A stretch of DNA of 46,746 nt from Candidatus Fusobacterium pullicola (GTDB taxonomy: Bacteria > Fusobacteriota > Fusobacteriia > Fusobacteriales > Fusobacteriaceae): contig JAHLFN010000012.1 in NCBI GenBank assembly GCA_018883725.1, positions 1-46,746 of the forward strand, given 5' to 3'. The position numbers and the translations under genes were made by a program. Positions within the stretch are counted from its first letter, which is position 1; each line of letters opens with the position of its first letter. This document shows, piece after piece, positions 11,726-35,230 of this stretch. The notes beneath the pieces were generated by a model. That model was not told the DNA's origin. It worked only from the letters and a program-made list of their open reading frames with translations, and made no database searches.

Positions 11726-11774
11726 ACGAATCCTCCTATATATATTTAATTTTCAATGTTCATAGGAGATTGCT

Positions 11775-11955
11775 ACTTATTACCCCTTTGTCCTTTAAGT
11801 TGTCTTAAAGTTTTGTACTGGTAATGGCTGTAACCACCTCTGGAGTATCCGCCGAATTTTCGATAAACTCCAGTCCTCGTCAACTTACTTTAGAAAGAAC
11901 TTTTAAAATAAAATTTCTTCTCTAAATAAGCTCTGGCGCTCTTAAATTTAATCTC
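11775..11955 (-). ncRNA. glmS self-cleaving ribozyme
   Basis: The glmS leader on the minus strand contains the conserved blocks of the family in order: AGCGCC at the cleavage site (11940-11935), GTTGACGAGG, TTATCGAAAATTCGGCGGAT, and the 3' motif ACAAAGGGGTAATA. In known members GlcN6P acts as the cofactor for cleavage 5' of GCGCC, here between 11940 and 11939, and the cleaved mRNA is then degraded. The predicted transcription start (about 11961) leaves a leader fragment of only about 20 nt. End positions are approximate. Confidence 0.95.
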
Positions 11956-16802: not shown

Positions 16803-16928
16803 GTCATGGAAATCATAGAGGAGTCTTATGGCGTAATAGTATCGAACCGTGTCAGGTCTGGAAGGAAGCAGCACTAAGGTATTTATTGCGGGTATAGGAT
16901 ATACTTCTTTGGTTTTCATGGCTTTTTT
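16803..16928 (+). ncRNA. ffs: signal recognition particle RNA (4.5S type)
   Basis: The conserved SRP core is present: GTGTCAGGTCTGGAAGGAAG, then CAGCACTAAGG. The 5' end GTCATGGAAATC pairs fully with the 3' end GGTTTTCATGGC (with G-U pairs), closing a rod about 120 nt long. TTTTTTTAT follows, so the terminal stem can act as terminator. This is the short bacterial SRP RNA without an Alu domain; it binds Ffh and targets membrane proteins. The next gene starts only about 20 nt after the end. Confidence 0.97.
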
Positions 16929-27705: not shown

Positions 27706-28275
27706 TCATTTAATTAAATTTTCTAAAGCTAAATTAAGTTCTAATACATTTATTATTCCATTTTTCTCCATTTTTTTAACTAGATTAATAACCTCTTCTT
27801 TTGTAATTCTATTTACTCTAGCCACTCTTTCAACTTGAATTAAGGCTCCCTGTGTAGTAATATGTGGATCAAGTCCAGAGGCTGAAGCTGTAACCATATC
27901 TACTGGAATATCTTTTATTTCAATACTTGGATTTTCAGATAATATCTTCTCTATTCTTTCCTTTATATTTTTATTATATTCCAAATTGCTTCCTCCTAAA
28001 TTACTTCCACCAGAACTTGGGATCATTTGAGCTTCTTTCAATGTTGAATATGTATTATAGTTCAAAATTGAAGCTCTTCCATGGAAATATTTATCACTTT
28101 CAAAATTTTGACCTATATATTTACTTCCTATCCCTTCTCCATTTTTTAAAATAATACTTCCATTTGCACTTTCATGGAAAAATACTTGAGCAAAACCATT
28201 TATCATATAGGTATAAATAGTTGTTATTAAAAATAATACTAATGTTATAAGTATCCCTTTTTTTAAATTTTCCAT
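27706..28275 (-). CDS. kdpC: potassium-transporting ATPase subunit C
   Basis: The single-span accessory subunit of the KdpFABC high-affinity K+ pump, thought to aid ATP or K+ binding. It has one N-terminal membrane helix (about 7-28, ILITLVLFLITTIYTYMI). The outer domain has the family motifs GSKYIGQNF, FHGRAS, and near the end DMVTASASGLDPHI and RVARVNRI. At 189 aa it is full length. ATG follows AGGAGGAAA, 18 nt after kdpB. Last gene of the operon. Confidence 0.96.
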   Translation of the reverse strand: MENLKKGILITLVLFLITTIYTYMINGFAQVFFHESANGSIILKNGEGIGSKYIGQNFESDKYFHGRASILNYNTYSTLKEAQMIPSSGGSNLGGSNLEYNKNIKERIEKILSENPSIEIKDIPVDMVTASASGLDPHITTQGALIQVERVARVNRITKEEVINLVKKMEKNGIINVLELNLALENLIK

Positions 28276-30354: not shown

Positions 30355-31986
30355 TTACCTCCAAATACTTAAGTGCTCTGCAATAGGTCCTAATGCTAAA
30401 GCTGGTAAAAATGTAAGAGCACCTATTGTTAATATTATAAATATTAACACCAATGAAAATATTATATTATCTGTTCTGAAACTTGTCTCAGTTGTAGGTA
30501 CAACTTTTTTCTTATAAAAAGAGTATCCAACGATTGTCATTAATACCATATTTACATATCTTCCTAAGAGAATAACTATTCCTGTCATAATATTCCAAAA
30601 AGAAGTATTATCTTTTAACCCTTCAAATCCAGAACCATTGTTAGCTGCACTTGATACATATTCATACAATACCTGAGTTATTCCGTGAAAACCTGCAGTT
30701 GATATCCCCTCATATCCATATCTCACCATCAATGATATCGCACTTGGTAATAATATAATTAATGGATGTAATAGTATTAAAAATGTTATAATTTGAATCT
30801 CTTTAGCCTCAACTTTTTTACCAAAAAATTCTGGAGTTCTTCCTACCATTAGTCCACATAAAAATACTCCTAAAATCATATACATTAGTATATTTATAAA
30901 TCCAACTCCCTTACCACCGAAAATACAGTTAAGCATCATATTTCCTAGTGCAAACATACCGGCTAATGGTGTAAGTGAATCATGCATATTATTTATGCTT
31001 CCTGTTGTAAATGAAGTTGTTATATTAGTAAATAGTGTAGAAGCAAATAATCCAAACCTTACTTCTTTTCCCTCCATATTTATTCCTGATATCCCTAATT
31101 CTTTTAAAATTGGTGTTCCTTGTTTTTCAAAATGATATATCATAAAGAATGATAATATAAATAAAATAAATACAGAGATAAAAATATACCAACCTTGCTT
31201 TTTATTTTTAGCTACAATTCCAAAAGCTATTATTGTTGCCCCTGGAAATACCATCATAGATAACATCTCTATATAGTTAGACCATATTGAAATATTTTCA
31301 AATGGATGAGCAGAGTTAGCTGTGAATAATCCTCCTCCATTATTTCCTAAATGCTTTATTGCTTGCCATGCTGCTACAGGTCCTAAAGCTATGGCTTGAT
31401 ATTTTCCTTCTAAAGTTCTTACTATTACTTGATTATCAAATGTTTGAGGTAAGCCACAAATTACTAAAAGTATTGCCACTACTAATGAGATAGGAAGTAA
31501 TAATCTTATAACCACCTTCACTAAATCCTCATAAAAGTTACCAAGCTTAATTCCCATAATTCCTCTTATTACAGCCATACAAATTACCATCCCAGTTGCT
31601 GCTGAGGTAAACATAAGGTTTATCAATATCAATCTTGAAATAGTACTATTTAAGACCTCGCCAGAATAGTGTTGTAAATTTGTATTTGTTATAAAACTTA
31701 TTGCTGTGTTAAAAGCTAGAGACAGAGAATCACCTTGTATATATAAAATTATATATGTAAAGATAAACATAATAAAATTAACACTTAAAAATGATACAAT
31801 ATAGCTCTTCAGTCCCATATTTTCATTTTTACATTTTAATAATTTAAAAATTGGAACCTCTATAGTTGTAAATAATCTTTCTCCTAATGTTTTTTCATGT
31901 GCTATTAGCTTAGATAGATACTTTCCGATTGGAACTATTAAAATAATGAACGCACATAAAAAAAGTATTAAACTTAATAAATTCAT
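30355..31986 (-). CDS. kdpA: potassium-transporting ATPase subunit A (K+-binding channel subunit)
   Basis: The ten-helix membrane subunit that selects and carries K+. Pore-loop motifs of the family are present: NNGGGLFTANSAHPFEN (second filter region), TGSINNMHDSLTPLAG, and AANNGSGFEGL. At 543 aa it is near the E. coli length (557). ATG 31986 follows AGGAGG, 15 nt after kdpF. It forms the operon kdpF-A-B-C without kdpD or kdpE on the same strand. Confidence 0.96.
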   Translation of the reverse strand: MNLLSLILFLCAFIILIVPIGKYLSKLIAHEKTLGERLFTTIEVPIFKLLKCKNENMGLKSYIVSFLSVNFIMFIFTYIILYIQGDSLSLAFNTAISFITNTNLQHYSGEVLNSTISRLILINLMFTSAATGMVICMAVIRGIMGIKLGNFYEDLVKVVIRLLLPISLVVAILLVICGLPQTFDNQVIVRTLEGKYQAIALGPVAAWQAIKHLGNNGGGLFTANSAHPFENISIWSNYIEMLSMMVFPGATIIAFGIVAKNKKQGWYIFISVFILFILSFFMIYHFEKQGTPILKELGISGINMEGKEVRFGLFASTLFTNITTSFTTGSINNMHDSLTPLAGMFALGNMMLNCIFGGKGVGFINILMYMILGVFLCGLMVGRTPEFFGKKVEAKEIQIITFLILLHPLIILLPSAISLMVRYGYEGISTAGFHGITQVLYEYVSSAANNGSGFEGLKDNTSFWNIMTGIVILLGRYVNMVLMTIVGYSFYKKKVVPTTETSFRTDNIIFSLVLIFIILTIGALTFLPALALGPIAEHLSIWR

Positions 31987-32001: not shown

Positions 32002-32079
32002 TTAAAATTTATCTGGATTGAATAGTGCATAAATTAAATAAATAAAAAGTAAAAATACAATAATTCCTAAAATTAACAT
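32002..32079 (-). CDS. kdpF: potassium-transporting ATPase subunit F (small membrane subunit)
   Basis: A 25-codon gene: MLILGIIVFLLFIYL, then IYALFNPDKF. One membrane helix followed by a polar NP(D/E)KF-type end is exactly the KdpF pattern, and it lies directly upstream of kdpA. KdpF stabilises the Kdp complex. ATG 32079 follows AGGAGGGAGAA. It is the first annotated gene after the long kdp leader. Confidence 0.93.
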   Translation of the reverse strand: MLILGIIVFLLFIYLIYALFNPDKF

Positions 32080-32104
32080 TTCTCCCTCCTAAATTATTCA
32101 ACTT

Positions 32105-32221
32105 TTAGGCTTTTAACTTAAAAAAAAGCAAAATAAAAACTGCTCCTAATATCCTTATTCTAAGAATATTAAAAAACAGTTTATTACATAGGTATAAATT
32201 TTCAGAATAAATCCCCTTCAT
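32105..32221 (-). CDS. candidate leader ORF in the kdp 5' region
   Basis: A 38-codon frame on the minus strand (ATG 32221, TAA 32107-32105) inside the kdpFABC leader. It starts MKGIYSENLYLCNK and ends in a hydrophobic run, ILGAVFILLFFKLKA. It passes through the whole terminator hairpin 32182-32137, so translating ribosomes could block that hairpin. The RBS is weak (GAG about 8 nt before ATG). It may be a leader peptide, a tiny membrane protein or chance; I lean slightly to chance or leader peptide. It ends 25 nt before kdpF. Confidence 0.35.
   Translation of the reverse strand: MKGIYSENLYLCNKLFFNILRIRILGAVFILLFFKLKA
32121..32182 (-). terminator. terminator hairpin in the kdpFABC leader
   Basis: On the minus strand AAACTG (32182-32177) pairs with CAGTTT (32142-32137). 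Inside, TTTTTAATATTCTT pairs with AAGGATATTAGGAG (14 bp with G-U pairs) around an AGAAT loop. The stem is about 20 bp and is followed by TTATTTTGCTTTTTTTT. It lies between the kdp promoter and kdpF, about 150 nt downstream of the predicted start, so it should control read-through into the operon. A 6-bp helix UUCAGA/UCUGAA that encloses an AUCC/GGAU pairing lies upstream (about 32200-32255) and could be part of a sensor, but no known riboswitch was recognised. Confidence 0.7.
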
Positions 32222-32336
32222 AAATTAACTCGGATAAATAAATATCTGAATAAACTTAATTTTTATAAAATATATCAAAATTATATTTTTTTGTAATATA
32301 TCTTAAATGTCTAGAGGTTTTGTTTTATGATTTTGA

Positions 32337-32365
32337 ATCATATCACTTTTTTATTTTTTTGTCAA
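32337..32365 (-). promoter_or_regulatory. kdpFABC promoter
   Basis: TTGACA (32365-32360), a 17-nt spacer and TATGAT (32342-32337) on the minus strand. Transcription would start near 32330, leaving about 250 nt of leader before kdpF. Its -35 lies 24 bp from the -35 of the divergent kdpD-like promoter. Confidence 0.75.
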
Positions 32366-32389: not shown

Positions 32390-32417
32390 TTGACTTTTTG
32401 TTATTTAAGAGTATAAT
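32390..32417 (+). promoter_or_regulatory. promoter of the riboswitch and kdpD-like gene
   Basis: TTGACT (32390-32395), a 16-nt spacer and TATAAT (32412-32417), with the riboswitch starting about 20 nt downstream. Confidence 0.8.
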
Positions 32418-32435
32418 CTACCTGTAAAAGAATAT

Positions 32436-32566
32436 TACCGATTCGCTTAATCTATTTTAAATAGAGCGGGGGACCCAACCTTCTTGGGGCGTATTTCTCT
32501 TTTAGAGAATAGGATACTTTTCAATCCGAGCCCGACAGCTAACCTCGTCAGCATTGAAAAGAGCCT
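32436..32566 (+). ncRNA. c-di-AMP riboswitch (ydaO/yuaA type)
   Basis: The hallmark blocks appear in order: CGCTTAA, GAGCGGGGGACCCA (32464-32477), GGGGCG (32486-32491), CCGAGCCCGACAGC followed by TAACCTCGTCAGC (32526-32552), with the stem CTTTTCAA/TTGAAAAG (32517-32524 with 32554-32561) around the last block. These are the conserved positions of the ydaO class, which binds cyclic di-AMP and usually turns genes off. A terminator follows at 32583-32617, then the kdpD-like gene. It is oriented with that gene, not with kdpFABC. The ends are approximate. Confidence 0.95.
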
Positions 32567-32582
32567 GGTTTTGTATAGTATC

Positions 32583-32617
32583 AACACCATGACTTTTTGT
32601 TATGGTGTTATTTTTTT
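32583..32617 (+). terminator. riboswitch expression-platform terminator
   Basis: AACACCAT pairs with ATGGTGTT and is followed by ATTTTTTT. It lies directly after the c-di-AMP aptamer and about 118 nt before the kdpD-like start. In this class ligand binding normally favours the terminator; that direction is inferred from the family. Confidence 0.85.
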
Positions 32618-32734
32618 ACAAAGTCTAGAGGTAATTTATGATATTATTTAAATGTTTTAGAGTTTGTTTATTTTACTCCTATCTTAGCTTAAAAACTAAG
32701 TTTTATTTAAATTTTTTAATTTAGGGAGATATCT

Positions 32735-33874
32735 ATGTCAGAAGAAAAGAGACTTACACCTGAAGAAGCATTAAAAATATATAATAAGGAGAAAAAAGGA
32801 AGATTAAAGATATATTTAGGATATGCTCCAGGAGTAGGAAAAACATATACAATGCTTCGTGAGGCTAATATTAGAGTCAAAAGAGGAGAAGATATCTGTA
32901 TAGGATATATAGAACCACATGATAGAAAAGCTACTACTGAACAAATTGGAATTTTGGAACAAATTCCTGTAAAAGAGATTGAGTATGCTAGTAAAATATA
33001 TAAAGAAGTCAATATTGAAAAAATTATTGAGAGAGGACCAGAAATAGTCCTAATTGATGAGCTAGCCCATACAAATATAAAAGGCAGCAAAAACGAGAAA
33101 AGATATCAAGATGTTCTTGAAATTTTAAATGCTGGTATAAATGTGCATACCACAGTTAATATCCAACATCTTGAAAGCTTAAATGATGTAGTTCAGACTA
33201 TCACTGGAATAGCTGTAAGAGAAACAGTTCCTGACACTATTTTGGCAGAAGCTGATGAGGTGGAGGTAATTGATATCTCATTTGAAAGTTTAAAAGAAAG
33301 ATTAGAAAGGGGAGAGATATACAATTTAAAAACAGCTTCTCAAGCTTTACGAAATTTTTTTAGAAAAGGAAATTTAAGTGCCTTAAGAGAGATTGCTTTA
33401 CGTCAAATAGCACAGGAGGTAGATAATAATCTCAATGAGTACTTGAATAATAAAAATATCAAAACTAACTGGTATACAGCTGAAAGAGTACTTGTTTCTA
33501 TCTCTTCAAGTCCAAAAGCTAATAAAGTTATAAGATATGGAGCTAGAATTGCTCAAAAATATAAGTGTGAATTCTATGTAATCTGTGTTGAACAAATAGG
33601 ATTTTTGGCTAAGGGATACTCTCCAGAAGATTGGAAAGTCATTGAAAAACATGAGGAATTAGCTAGAAGTTTAGGAGCAGAAACAATCAGATTACAAGGT
33701 AAAAATATTGTAAAAGAGATTTTGAAGTTTTCAGAAGAAAAAAGAATTACTCAAATAGTTTTAGGTCATAGTAAGAGAAATAAATTAACTACTTTTTTTA
33801 AGGGATCTGTAATCAACAAAATTATAGAGCATTCTAAAGGTGTTGAAATAAGAGTTGTTCCATGGGGGCTATAA
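32735..33874 (+). CDS. kdpD-like: stand-alone KdpD sensor region (ATPase plus USP), no histidine kinase
   Basis: A 379-aa cytoplasmic protein equal to the N-terminal part of KdpD. The KdpD domain has Walker A GYAPGVGKT (29-37), IGYIEPHDRKATTEQ, and Walker B VLIDELAHTN (105-114). A universal-stress-protein domain follows (about 245-379). It stops before the four membrane helices and kinase of a normal KdpD (about 900 aa), and the next bases are a terminator, so it is complete and not cut off. In S. aureus KdpD the USP domain binds c-di-AMP through SxS-x20-FTAxY; here SSS-x20-F is kept but TAxY is not. ATG follows TAGGGAG. It is divergent from kdpFABC and controlled by a c-di-AMP riboswitch. 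Confidence 0.9.
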   Translation: MSEEKRLTPEEALKIYNKEKKGRLKIYLGYAPGVGKTYTMLREANIRVKRGEDICIGYIEPHDRKATTEQIGILEQIPVKEIEYASKIYKEVNIEKIIERGPEIVLIDELAHTNIKGSKNEKRYQDVLEILNAGINVHTTVNIQHLESLNDVVQTITGIAVRETVPDTILAEADEVEVIDISFESLKERLERGEIYNLKTASQALRNFFRKGNLSALREIALRQIAQEVDNNLNEYLNNKNIKTNWYTAERVLVSISSSPKANKVIRYGARIAQKYKCEFYVICVEQIGFLAKGYSPEDWKVIEKHEELARSLGAETIRLQGKNIVKEILKFSEEKRITQIVLGHSKRNKLTTFFKGSVINKIIEHSKGVEIRVVPWGL

Positions 33875-33888
33875 CCCCCATTTTTATT
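33862..33888 (+). terminator. terminator of the kdpD-like gene
   Basis: ATGGGGG-CTATAA-CCCCCAT then TTTTATTT. The stem includes the stop codon of the kdpD-like gene and touches the end of the convergent OLD-family gene. Confidence 0.9.
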
Positions 33889-35230
33889 TAAATATAAATC
33901 TGATTTTCTCCTCCAGTTTTTCAGGAATAATAAACTCTTTATTTGTTACTGTTTTCAAGGCATAAAATGGTTTATTTTTATAGTTTTTTCTCTCTCTATT
34001 CTCCTGATATATCTCCTCTTCAATATCATTTTCAAACATTATACAACTTCCAATATCCTTCTTTATACTATTTTCTATTATTCTATTTTTTTGGTTTGAA
34101 TTCTCTATCTCTTCAGGAGTTCTCCAAAGATGGTTGTCTTTGTCATATACAGCTACATAAGGGATTTTAAAAACATTTAATAATTTTATAAATTGTGGAA
34201 TTAAACTTTTACTTCCACACTCTAAAATAGAGTAATCATATTTGTAAATATCTAATTTTTTTGAAAGGTATCCCAATACTATCTTGTCTGTTTGTCCCTC
34301 TACAAGTATAACTTTTTTAGCAAAAAATAACTCACTTCTATCTGGATTTATCCAATAGTTCATATTAAAATTTTTTATCTCGTCTCCAGAAAAAAGATAG
34401 CCTTTAAATTGAAATACTTTACTTCCACTATTTTCACTCTTTCTTACTATACAGATAGATTTATACATATGTAAATTTATAAAATTATTTGAATGCGTTG
34501 CTACATATATTTGAGTTCCGAGTTTTGTTAATACACAGATATTAAAAAATAGCTCTTTTTGTTTTTGAGGATGAAGATACAGCTCCGGTTCTTCAAATAA
34601 TATCAAGGTATTATCTAATACAGAATGTCCTGTATCTCTTGAATATTGAGCTAATACTCCAAAAATCTCAAATAGTAAATTTCTGTATAATCCTCTACTT
34701 GTATACTCACTCTGTAATTCATTAAAAGTAGCTACTATTTTATTTAAAGCTTTCGGTTGATTAATCTTCCTCTTCTCTAATATTTTTAAAAGAGATAAAA
34801 TAAAAAATTCTGTTTGTTCCTTCTCTGAAAATGATGGAATAAATAAAATAGAAACATGTTCTGTTATACTCTGATATTCCTCTTCTGTTATTCTATTCCA
34901 AATATTATTATAAAATACAAAATAATAGATATCCCCATCGTATGTCTTAGTTACTTTCAAATGAATATTTTTTCCTGTAATAGTCATATCTGCCACTTGA
35001 AAACTTTGTTTATAATAATTATAAAAAGATCCTTCTATTGATAAAAAGTTAGTACCATTTCTTAAATCTCTACTTCTAAAATTTCTATATTTTAAAAAAA
35101 ACATAATTGCTGACATTATACTTGATTTTCCACTATTACTTTGTCCAATAAAAAGCATTAAGTTTTCAAATTTTATATCAGTTTCCTCTATACATTGCCA
35201 ATTTTTAATTTTTAATTCTTTTAAATACAT
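33884..35230 (-). CDS. OLD-family AAA ATPase with TOPRIM nuclease domain
   Basis: A 448-aa protein. The ABC/SMC-like ATPase has Walker A GQSNSGKS (29-36), Walker B LILFEEPELYLHP (209-221) and the ATHS switch (244-247). The TOPRIM nuclease follows, with E311 in VILVEGQTDKI and D363/D365 in AVYDKDN. This order is typical of OLD nucleases, some of which act in phage defence or DNA repair. It has no neighbouring helicase (no GajB/UvrD-like partner), so it is the solitary type if functional. ATG 35230 follows AGGAGGG. Flanked by housekeeping genes; no att site or repeat was seen. Confidence 0.82.
   Translation of the reverse strand: MYLKELKIKNWQCIEETDIKFENLMLFIGQSNSGKSSIMSAIMFFLKYRNFRSRDLRNGTNFLSIEGSFYNYYKQSFQVADMTITGKNIHLKVTKTYDGDIYYFVFYNNIWNRITEEEYQSITEHVSILFIPSFSEKEQTEFFILSLLKILEKRKINQPKALNKIVATFNELQSEYTSRGLYRNLLFEIFGVLAQYSRDTGHSVLDNTLILFEEPELYLHPQKQKELFFNICVLTKLGTQIYVATHSNNFINLHMYKSICIVRKSENSGSKVFQFKGYLFSGDEIKNFNMNYWINPDRSELFFAKKVILVEGQTDKIVLGYLSKKLDIYKYDYSILECGSKSLIPQFIKLLNVFKIPYVAVYDKDNHLWRTPEEIENSNQKNRIIENSIKKDIGSCIMFENDIEEEIYQENRERKNYKNKPFYALKTVTNKEFIIPEKLEEKIRFIFK

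What the first reader, a model, noticed from the sequence alone, without database searches (positions are those of the whole stretch)
32390..33888. c-di-AMP riboswitch controls a KdpD that has only sensor domains
Sequence shows a ydaO-class aptamer, a terminator, and then a complete 379-aa gene with the KdpD ATPase and USP domains but no membrane helices or histidine kinase. KdpD USP domains bind c-di-AMP in some Firmicutes, so the same messenger may control both synthesis and activity of this protein. With no kinase and no KdpE nearby, how it signals is open: it may bind the pump, a separate kinase, or the kdp leader RNA.
Basis: partly seen in the sequence, partly recalled or inferred. Interest (0 to 1): 0.75.

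Follow-up and report, generated by a model that had tools for sequence, protein, structure and literature searches.

The report
Riboswitch-controlled brake on a potassium pump
A gut Fusobacterium places a short version of the potassium-pump regulator KdpD, most likely an enzyme that switches the pump off, behind an RNA switch for the messenger cyclic di-AMP; both parts are known from other bacteria, and the new points are where the switch sits and that close relatives keep a larger potassium-signalling gene cluster behind the same switch.

Summary
The + strand carries a c-di-AMP riboswitch (RF00379, 91.5 bits, cut-off 38), a terminator, and an intact 379-aa KdpD-domain + Usp protein without membrane or histidine-kinase parts. 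kdpFABC runs divergently, not behind the switch. That its signalling is open is mostly out of date: Silberberg et al. 2024 (PMC11018627) showed that the KdpD domain is an atypical serine kinase that phosphorylates KdpB and stops the pump, and that a short KdpD/Usp protein from Deinococcus is stimulated by c-di-AMP. Catalytic residues and the KdpB target motif are intact here. Of 98 genomes of the phylum, all 11 with kdpB have the short KdpD; the three with KdpD but no kdpB have full-length ones. Best reading: a stand-alone pump brake, made when c-di-AMP is low and used when it rises. c-di-AMP binding by this Usp domain is unsettled (2 of 5 motif positions, as in E. coli). New: six of eight kdp loci in the genus carry a histidine kinase and a receiver protein with a TPR-like tail (three also TrkA/TrkA/TrkH) in the riboswitch-headed cluster. 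This species has lost them, leaving a trace in its leader. New variant of a known kind.

The parts
32390..32417 (+). promoter-like site TTGACT-16-TATAAT ahead of the riboswitch
   Evidence: 11 of 12 matches; consensus only (9 sites found in the stretch against 7.3 expected from shuffles)
32434..32568 (+). c-di-AMP (ydaO/yuaA) riboswitch aptamer
   Evidence: RF00379 91.5 bits, gathering score 38
32583..32609 (+). intrinsic terminator hairpin followed by a T run; expression platform
   Evidence: a hairpin with a T-rich tail follows the aptamer in the 8 kdp leaders and 5 of 6 opu leaders printed (the sixth was not printed)
32735..33874 (+). short kdpD, 379 aa: KdpD domain (predicted atypical serine kinase, residues 20-229) + Usp domain (250-368)
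32337..32365 (-). divergent promoter-like site TTGACA-17-TATGAT, candidate promoter of kdpFABC
   Evidence: 11 of 12 matches; consensus only
32002..32079 (-). kdpF, 25 aa
   Evidence: aligned with 7 relatives
30355..31986 (-). kdpA, 543 aa
28293..30347 (-). kdpB, 684 aa; TGES motif with Ser161 = predicted phosphorylation target
27706..28275 (-). kdpC, 189 aa

Best explanation
The gene encodes a stand-alone KdpD/Usp atypical serine kinase that brakes the divergently encoded K+ pump by phosphorylating KdpB on the serine of its TGES motif. Its synthesis is under an OFF-type c-di-AMP riboswitch: when c-di-AMP is low (low K+), the transcript reads through the terminator and the brake is made while the pump is needed; when c-di-AMP rises (K+ plentiful), synthesis stops and the protein already present, probably stimulated by c-di-AMP on its Usp domain, shuts the pump. 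In this species it is the only gene left behind the riboswitch; relatives keep a histidine kinase, receiver proteins and sometimes TrkA/TrkH there. Shown here: the parts, their order and strands, catalytic residues, co-occurrence with kdpB, absence of the neighbours. Inferred from published homologues: kinase activity, direction of the riboswitch, and c-di-AMP stimulation (the weakest step).
For: Aptamer and terminator; hairpins with T-rich tails after the aptamer in the 8 kdp leaders of the genus. Domains. Residues named by Silberberg et al. (Walker A K37/T38, Walker B D109/E110, R190 in E. coli numbering) are present in 15 of 15 aligned KdpDs, window included; KdpB T-G-E-S in 6 of 6 aligned sequences, one of them a KdpB fragment. 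The model matches the KdpD-domain structure 2r8r (TM 0.88 by target) and, first among Usp structures, 7ji4, the S. aureus KdpD Usp with c-di-AMP (TM 0.87 by target). Of 98 genomes of the phylum, 11 have kdpB at E <= 1e-100 and all 11 have a KdpD domain over the cut-off, in frames of 380-420 aa in 10 and broken in one. The 3 other genomes with KdpD over the cut-off and no kdpB encode full-length KdpDs with DUF4118 and histidine-kinase domains. The genome has a diadenylate cyclase. Literature: PMC11018627, PMC6488665.
Against: No activity was measured. The Trp39 of the adenine pair is Tyr here (as in 12 other rows of 15, D. radiodurans included). The Usp domain meets 2 of 5 positions of the c-di-AMP motif of Dutta et al., no more than E. 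coli KdpD does, so direct stimulation may fail. The antiterminator pairing is weak: p 0.014 to 0.234 against shuffles, under 0.05 in 2 of 11 leaders, and each tail pairs best with its own terminator in only 2 of 11. What regulates kdpFABC transcription in this species is unknown, so co-expression of brake and pump is an assumption.
Confidence: 0.72

Rival explanations
1. Brake without a sensor: the protein is a KdpB serine kinase, but its Usp domain does not bind c-di-AMP. c-di-AMP acts only through the riboswitch, and the kinase is constitutive or answers another ligand.
For: Only S244 and S246 of the five-position motif are kept; A242 is Ser, N249 is Ala, Y271 is Cys. E. coli KdpD, said by Dutta et al. 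to lack the motif, also matches 2 of 5 in my alignment.
Against: Closest match among Usp structures is the c-di-AMP-bound 7ji4.
Confidence: 0.35
2. Historical accident: the riboswitch belongs to a histidine kinase/receiver/Trk operon, and kdpD came directly under it only because those genes were deleted. Riboswitch control of kdpD has no selected purpose in this species.
For: HK and receiver-TPR orthologues occur in six of the eight genomes with the kdp riboswitch (one of the six broken) and not in the two genomes of this species. The sequence after the terminator matches the leader of the HK gene in a close relative up to its ribosome-binding stretch (score 43; 0 of 500 base shuffles reach it).
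Against: In one relative (G024) kdpD directly follows the riboswitch while HK and Trk genes are still present, on two contigs, so kdpD-first order is not only a deletion product. kdpD lies on the riboswitch strand downstream of it in all 8 loci.
Confidence: 0.25
3. Transcriptional regulator: the protein controls kdpFABC transcription through another histidine kinase or by acting on the kdp leader RNA.
For: The genome has 13 HATPase_c matches and five proteins that align along most of KdpE at 29-33% identity. The kdpF leader can form a terminator-like hairpin.
Against: No DUF4118 histidine kinase; the kdp-linked HK of relatives is absent. The receiver proteins linked to kdpD in relatives have no DNA-binding domain by Pfam, 5 of 5 scanned. 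Deletion of the short kdpD of B. thuringiensis left kdp transcription unchanged (PMC6488665, passages).
Confidence: 0.07
4. Decayed fragment of a full-length KdpD.
For: It lacks everything after the Usp domain.
Against: Intact frame of about the same length in relatives (380-420 aa in 10 of the 11 kdpB genomes, G027 broken) and conserved catalytic residues. Short KdpD/Usp proteins are a recognised class (PMC11018627; NCBIfam NF038185 is the best match, below its cut-off).
Confidence: 0.02

Closest known systems
Short KdpD/Usp atypical serine kinase of Deinococcus geothermalis (Silberberg et al. 2024, PMC11018627)
   Same: KdpD + Usp domains only, catalytic residues, intact KdpB TGES serine, no close KdpE, diadenylate cyclase present
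   Different: Here the gene is behind a c-di-AMP riboswitch and divergent from kdpFABC; the Trp of the adenine pair is Tyr; activity not shown; the D. geothermalis sequence itself was not compared
c-di-AMP riboswitch-controlled kdpFABC of the Bacillus cereus group (Wang et al. 2019, PMC6488665)
   Same: ydaO-type riboswitch with terminator, truncated KdpD, no KdpE
   Different: There the switch controls the pump operon and the truncated kdpD lies downstream of it; here the switch is on the opposite strand and leads to kdpD (and, in relatives, to HK, receiver and Trk genes). Wang et al. report riboswitch-controlled kdp as apparently restricted to Bacillales
KdpDE two-component system of Escherichia coli
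   Same: [quoted passage not shown] neighbouring kdpFABC
   Different: No membrane domain, GAF, histidine kinase or close KdpE
S. aureus KdpD Usp domain (7ji4; Dutta et al. 2021, PMC8214093)
   Same: Usp fold, best structural match among Usp entries
   Different: Only 2 of 5 c-di-AMP motif positions

Membership tests
c-di-AMP (ydaO/yuaA) riboswitch, RF00379 | covariance-model score above the gathering score over the full model | tested here: met
   91.5 against 38 bits, model 1-134
c-di-AMP (ydaO/yuaA) riboswitch, RF00379 | expression platform: intrinsic terminator after the aptamer | tested here: met
   32583-32609; 13 of the 14 leaders of the genus were printed and all 13 show a hairpin with a T-rich tail
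c-di-AMP (ydaO/yuaA) riboswitch, RF00379 | alternative pairing of aptamer tail with terminator arm (OFF logic) | tested here: inconclusive
   the same two regions pair in 11 of 11 leaders tested (of 14), but p is under 0.05 in only 2 of 11 and own-terminator pairing is the best of its row in only 2 of 11
c-di-AMP (ydaO/yuaA) riboswitch, RF00379 | binds c-di-AMP and ends transcription | not testable with these tools
   needs in-line probing and in vitro transcription
short KdpD/Usp atypical serine kinase | KdpD + Usp domains without TM, GAF or DHp/CA domains | tested here: met
short KdpD/Usp atypical serine kinase | Walker A G-x5-GKT, Walker B Asp-Glu, Arg190 equivalent | tested here: met
   G29...K36 T37, D108 E109, R189
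short KdpD/Usp atypical serine kinase | Trp39 equivalent of the adenine pair | tested here: inconclusive
   Tyr38 here; Tyr also in D. radiodurans and 11 other rows, Cys in one, Trp only in E. coli
short KdpD/Usp atypical serine kinase | target serine in KdpB TGES | tested here: met
short KdpD/Usp atypical serine kinase | no KdpE; diadenylate cyclase in the genome (usual company of the class, not strictly defining) | tested here: met
   absence of KdpE judged by identity of at most 33%
short KdpD/Usp atypical serine kinase | phosphorylates KdpB, stimulated by c-di-AMP | not testable with these tools
   needs purified proteins
c-di-AMP-binding KdpD-Usp (motif of Dutta et al. 2021) | (A/G/C)xSxSx2N and Y/F at five positions | tested here: not met
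   S,S,S,A,C: 2 of 5
NCBIfam NF038185 KdpD_non_kinase | score above the curated cut-off | tested here: not met
   411.8 against 550, though best match; D. radiodurans short KdpD also falls below, 358.7
KdpDE two-component system | histidine-kinase domain and KdpE | tested here: not met
riboswitch-controlled kdpFABC (Bacillus cereus group type) | aptamer in the 5' leader of kdpFABC | tested here: not met
   aptamer on the opposite strand, divergent; no RF00379 match on the kdpF strand

The most novel reading that the evidence does not exclude
A c-di-AMP riboswitch heads a potassium-signalling operon in this Fusobacterium lineage whose outputs do not bind DNA: a membrane histidine kinase, a receiver protein with a TPR-like tail, TrkA/TrkH and the KdpB serine kinase. 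The operon sets K+ transporter activity after synthesis, with the messenger repressing synthesis of the brake and activating it at once; F. mortiferum keeps only the brake. HK/receiver/short-kdpD clusters divergent from kdpA in two Clostridium genomes suggest that the module is older than the riboswitch.
Probability: 0.25. Interest if true: 0.65.

Novelty: new variant of a known kind. Interest (0 to 1): 0.42.

Why it matters
It puts the recently found KdpD serine kinase, rather than its target pump, under a c-di-AMP riboswitch, in a phylum outside the Bacillales where riboswitch-controlled kdp was reported. If the protein is also c-di-AMP-activated, one messenger would stop synthesis of a brake and engage it at the same time, a simple testable design. 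The clusters of relatives name a histidine kinase and a receiver protein without a DNA-binding domain as candidates for a further layer of K+ control that I found no description of.

Tried and rejected
Full kdpDE or a DUF4118 histidine kinase elsewhere in the genome: not found. Orthologues of the kdp-linked HK and receiver-TPR protein elsewhere in the genome: not found; the matches there are 29-33% identical to the HK and 31-40% to the receiver-TPR protein, mostly over its receiver part. The copies at the kdp loci and on the second G024 contig are 56-100% and 63-100% identical, apart from decayed pieces of the broken G027 HK at 41%. The TrkHs of this genome are 28-33% identical to the operon TrkH.

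Weak KdpD matches: one search lists 32 of 98 genomes at E <= 0.001, only 14 over the cut-off. I dropped the 18 below it from the count. I scanned 6 of those 18 proteins; all 6 are SRP-receptor-type GTPases.

A conserved RNA in the divergent kdpF leader: no Rfam match and little alignment across the genus outside promoter and kdpF. Terminator-like hairpins have z from -0.6 to -3.4 in 8 leaders, at or below -2.0 in 5 of 8; left unexplained.

D. geothermalis KdpD, the short form tested in vitro, could not be fetched: 21 Deinococcus plasmid records matched, 15 D. radiodurans and six others, none named geothermalis. An automated antiterminator search found no hairpin in 6 of 13 leaders and doubtful ones in others; replaced with hand-cut pieces. 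The trkH-kdpD junction of G019 does not align significantly with this leader (p 0.156), so only one side of the deletion leaves a trace; the shuffles keep base composition only.

Papers: searches for Fusobacterium + c-di-AMP + riboswitch (9 papers), ydaO + kdpD + Fusobacteria (1, Wang et al.), KdpD + response regulator + TPR + Clostridium + kdpABC (0), c-di-AMP + riboswitch + kdpD (35, of which 20 listed), and KdpD + serine kinase + c-di-AMP + KdpB from 2024 (1) gave no title or abstract start describing this arrangement (listings only). Block et al. 2010 and Nelson et al. 2013, which Wang et al. cite for predicted riboswitches in phyla that include Fusobacteria, are not held, so earlier mention of this riboswitch cannot be excluded.

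Full report
WHAT IS THERE. The + strand at 32390-33874 holds, in order, a promoter-like site, a c-di-AMP riboswitch aptamer (RF00379, 91.5 bits, gathering score 38), a terminator with a T run and an intact 379-aa gene with a Pfam KdpD domain and a Usp domain and no other family. On the - strand lie kdpF, kdpA, kdpB and kdpC. The two promoter-like sites stand back to back, with their -35 boxes starting at 32365 and 32390, so the riboswitch can act on the kdpD transcript but not on the pump transcript, if these are the promoters. A named record of Fusobacterium mortiferum carries the same KdpD at 99% identity.

WHAT THE PROTEIN DOES. Silberberg et al. 2024 (PMC11018627; abstract, section 8 and passages seen) showed that the KdpD domain is an atypical serine kinase that phosphorylates KdpB Ser162 and stops the pump; that some species have only the KdpD and Usp parts, mostly without KdpE; and that such a short protein from Deinococcus geothermalis is stimulated by c-di-AMP. 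The residues named in that work are kept here: Walker A Lys-Thr, Walker B Asp-Glu, and the Arg of the adenine pair are present in 15 of 15 aligned sequences; the Trp of that pair is Tyr here and in 12 other rows, D. radiodurans included. The KdpB TGES motif is intact. A model (mean pLDDT 79, pTM 0.52) matches the KdpD-domain structure 2r8r and, first among Usp structures, the c-di-AMP-bound S. aureus KdpD Usp 7ji4. Both are also found by sequence, so the model adds little beyond the domain calls.

CO-OCCURRENCE. In 98 genomes of the phylum, 32 have a KdpD-domain match at E <= 0.001 and 14 over the cut-off; 6 of the 18 weak ones were scanned and all 6 are SRP-receptor-type GTPases. kdpB is found at E <= 1e-100 in 11 genomes, 10 of them over that family's cut-off; the eleventh match is cut by a contig end. 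All 11 are among the 14, with open frames of 380-420 aa in 10 and a broken gene in G027. The other 3 of the 14 have no kdpB match and encode full-length KdpDs with DUF4118, HisKA and HATPase_c domains. Short KdpD therefore goes with its presumed target.

c-di-AMP BINDING. The published motif for KdpD Usp domains has five positions (PMC8214093, abstract and passages). This protein has Ser, Ser, Ser, Ala and Cys there, so 2 of 5 are met (the phmmer alignment puts the same residues opposite). D. radiodurans short KdpD meets 1 of 5 and E. coli 2 of 5 in my alignment. The motif was built on Firmicutes and may not decide the matter, but direct activation of this protein by c-di-AMP is the weakest step. 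A diadenylate cyclase is encoded in the genome.

THE SWITCH. A hairpin with a T-rich tail follows the aptamer in the 8 kdp leaders and in the 5 of 6 opu leaders that I printed. The aptamer's 3' tail can pair with the 5' arm and loop of the terminator, in the same two regions in 11 of 11 leaders tested (of 14 in the genus). The support is weak: p from 0.014 to 0.234, under 0.05 in 2 of 11, and a tail pairs best with its own terminator in only 2 of 11 rows of the all-against-all table. The OFF direction rests mainly on published work, such as B. thuringiensis (PMC6488665, passages).

RELATIVES. RF00379 is over the cut-off in 12 of 98 genomes, which are all 12 genomes of this genus; 4 further genomes have matches below it. 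Of the 14 matches over the cut-off, 8 are at kdp loci, each divergent from kdpA, and 6 precede an OpuC-like transporter operon (domains checked by Pfam for one of the six, the others by ORF length and N-terminal sequence). Behind the 8 kdp riboswitches: kdpD alone in this species (G000, G021); kdpD and then the start of a histidine kinase at a contig end in G024, with the kinase's end, a receiver-TPR gene, TrkA, TrkA and TrkH on a second contig; HK, receiver-TPR, TrkA, TrkA, TrkH, kdpD in G019; the same with an extra single receiver in G026; HK, receiver, receiver-TPR, kdpD in G025 and G028; and a broken version of that in G027. That the two G024 contigs belong together is inferred. Of the longer receiver proteins I scanned four: the TPR match is over Pfam's cut-off in one (L082) and weak in three; none of the four, nor the single receiver of G026, shows a DNA-binding domain, so they are not KdpE. 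The other 3 kdpB genomes (G087, G088, G097) have short KdpD and no RF00379 match. Two Clostridium records show HK, a receiver protein and short kdpD on one strand and kdpA on the other, without an RF00379 match in the stretch (Pfam for the HK and receiver of L069 only). A third, L066, lacks the HK and has kdpABC convergent with kdpD.

LOSS IN THIS SPECIES. No close relative of the HK, the receiver-TPR protein or the operon TrkH was found in this genome (87 contigs, 99% complete). The KdpD tree groups this species with G019, which has the full cluster (95/93 support); the KdpA tree leaves them unresolved. The sequence after this terminator aligns with the HK leader of G019 up to its ribosome-binding stretch (score 43, 95th percentile of base shuffles 25, 0 of 500 reach it), while the other junction gives no signal (p 0.156). 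Loss of the intervening genes is the simplest account; G024 shows that kdpD can also stand first without the loss.

HOW IT MOST LIKELY WORKS. At low K+ c-di-AMP is low, the leader reads through, and the brake is made while the pump is needed. When K+ returns c-di-AMP rises, new synthesis stops, and the brake already present phosphorylates KdpB. The scheme is inferred from published homologues; nothing was measured here. What drives kdpFABC transcription remains open; its leader has a terminator-like hairpin with z at or below -2.0 in 5 of 8 genomes, not in this one (-1.6).

VERDICT. The parts are of known kinds. What is new is the placement (riboswitch on the regulator and not on the pump, outside Bacillales) and the larger riboswitch-headed cluster of relatives. 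The paper searches showed no description of this arrangement in their listings, but two older riboswitch surveys were not held.

Noticed in passing
L068 5539-5985 (+), Clostridium rhizosphaerae: A 148-aa ORF that is a lone KdpB actuator domain with TGES (51% identical to window KdpB residues 91-188) ends 3 bases before the short kdpD: possible decoy substrate or remnant.
   Followed up: partly
L068 2269-4707, L069 3517-5945 (+): Histidine kinase plus receiver protein (TPR match weak, below cut-off, in L069) upstream of short kdpD in two Clostridium genomes, without an RF00379 match in the fetched stretch.
   Followed up: partly
window 32080-32336 (-) and the same leader in 7 relatives: kdpF leaders can form terminator-like hairpins (z -0.6 to -3.4) and are poorly conserved; possible attenuation of kdpFABC.
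   Followed up: partly
L143 (G019 kdpB) and L091 (G027 kdpA, HK, kdpD): kdpB of G019 has an in-frame stop and several kdp-locus genes of G027 are broken, which may be real decay or assembly error.
   Followed up: no
L097, L098, L099 (G046, G045, G002): Full-length KdpD histidine kinases followed by a 229-230 aa ORF that looks like a response regulator, in genomes without a kdpB match: a KdpDE-like pair serving another target.
   Followed up: partly
L081, L083, L085, L086, L087, L093: c-di-AMP riboswitch ahead of an OpuC-like osmolyte transporter (permease/binding protein and CBS-ABC ATPase) in 6 genomes of the genus; domains checked in L093 only.
   Followed up: partly
window 33884-35230 (-): OLD-like AAA ATPase with TOPRIM domain, convergent with kdpD with a gap of about 10 bases.
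   Followed up: no
window 11769-11951 (-) and 16815-16913 (+): glmS ribozyme and small SRP RNA, ordinary.
   Followed up: no
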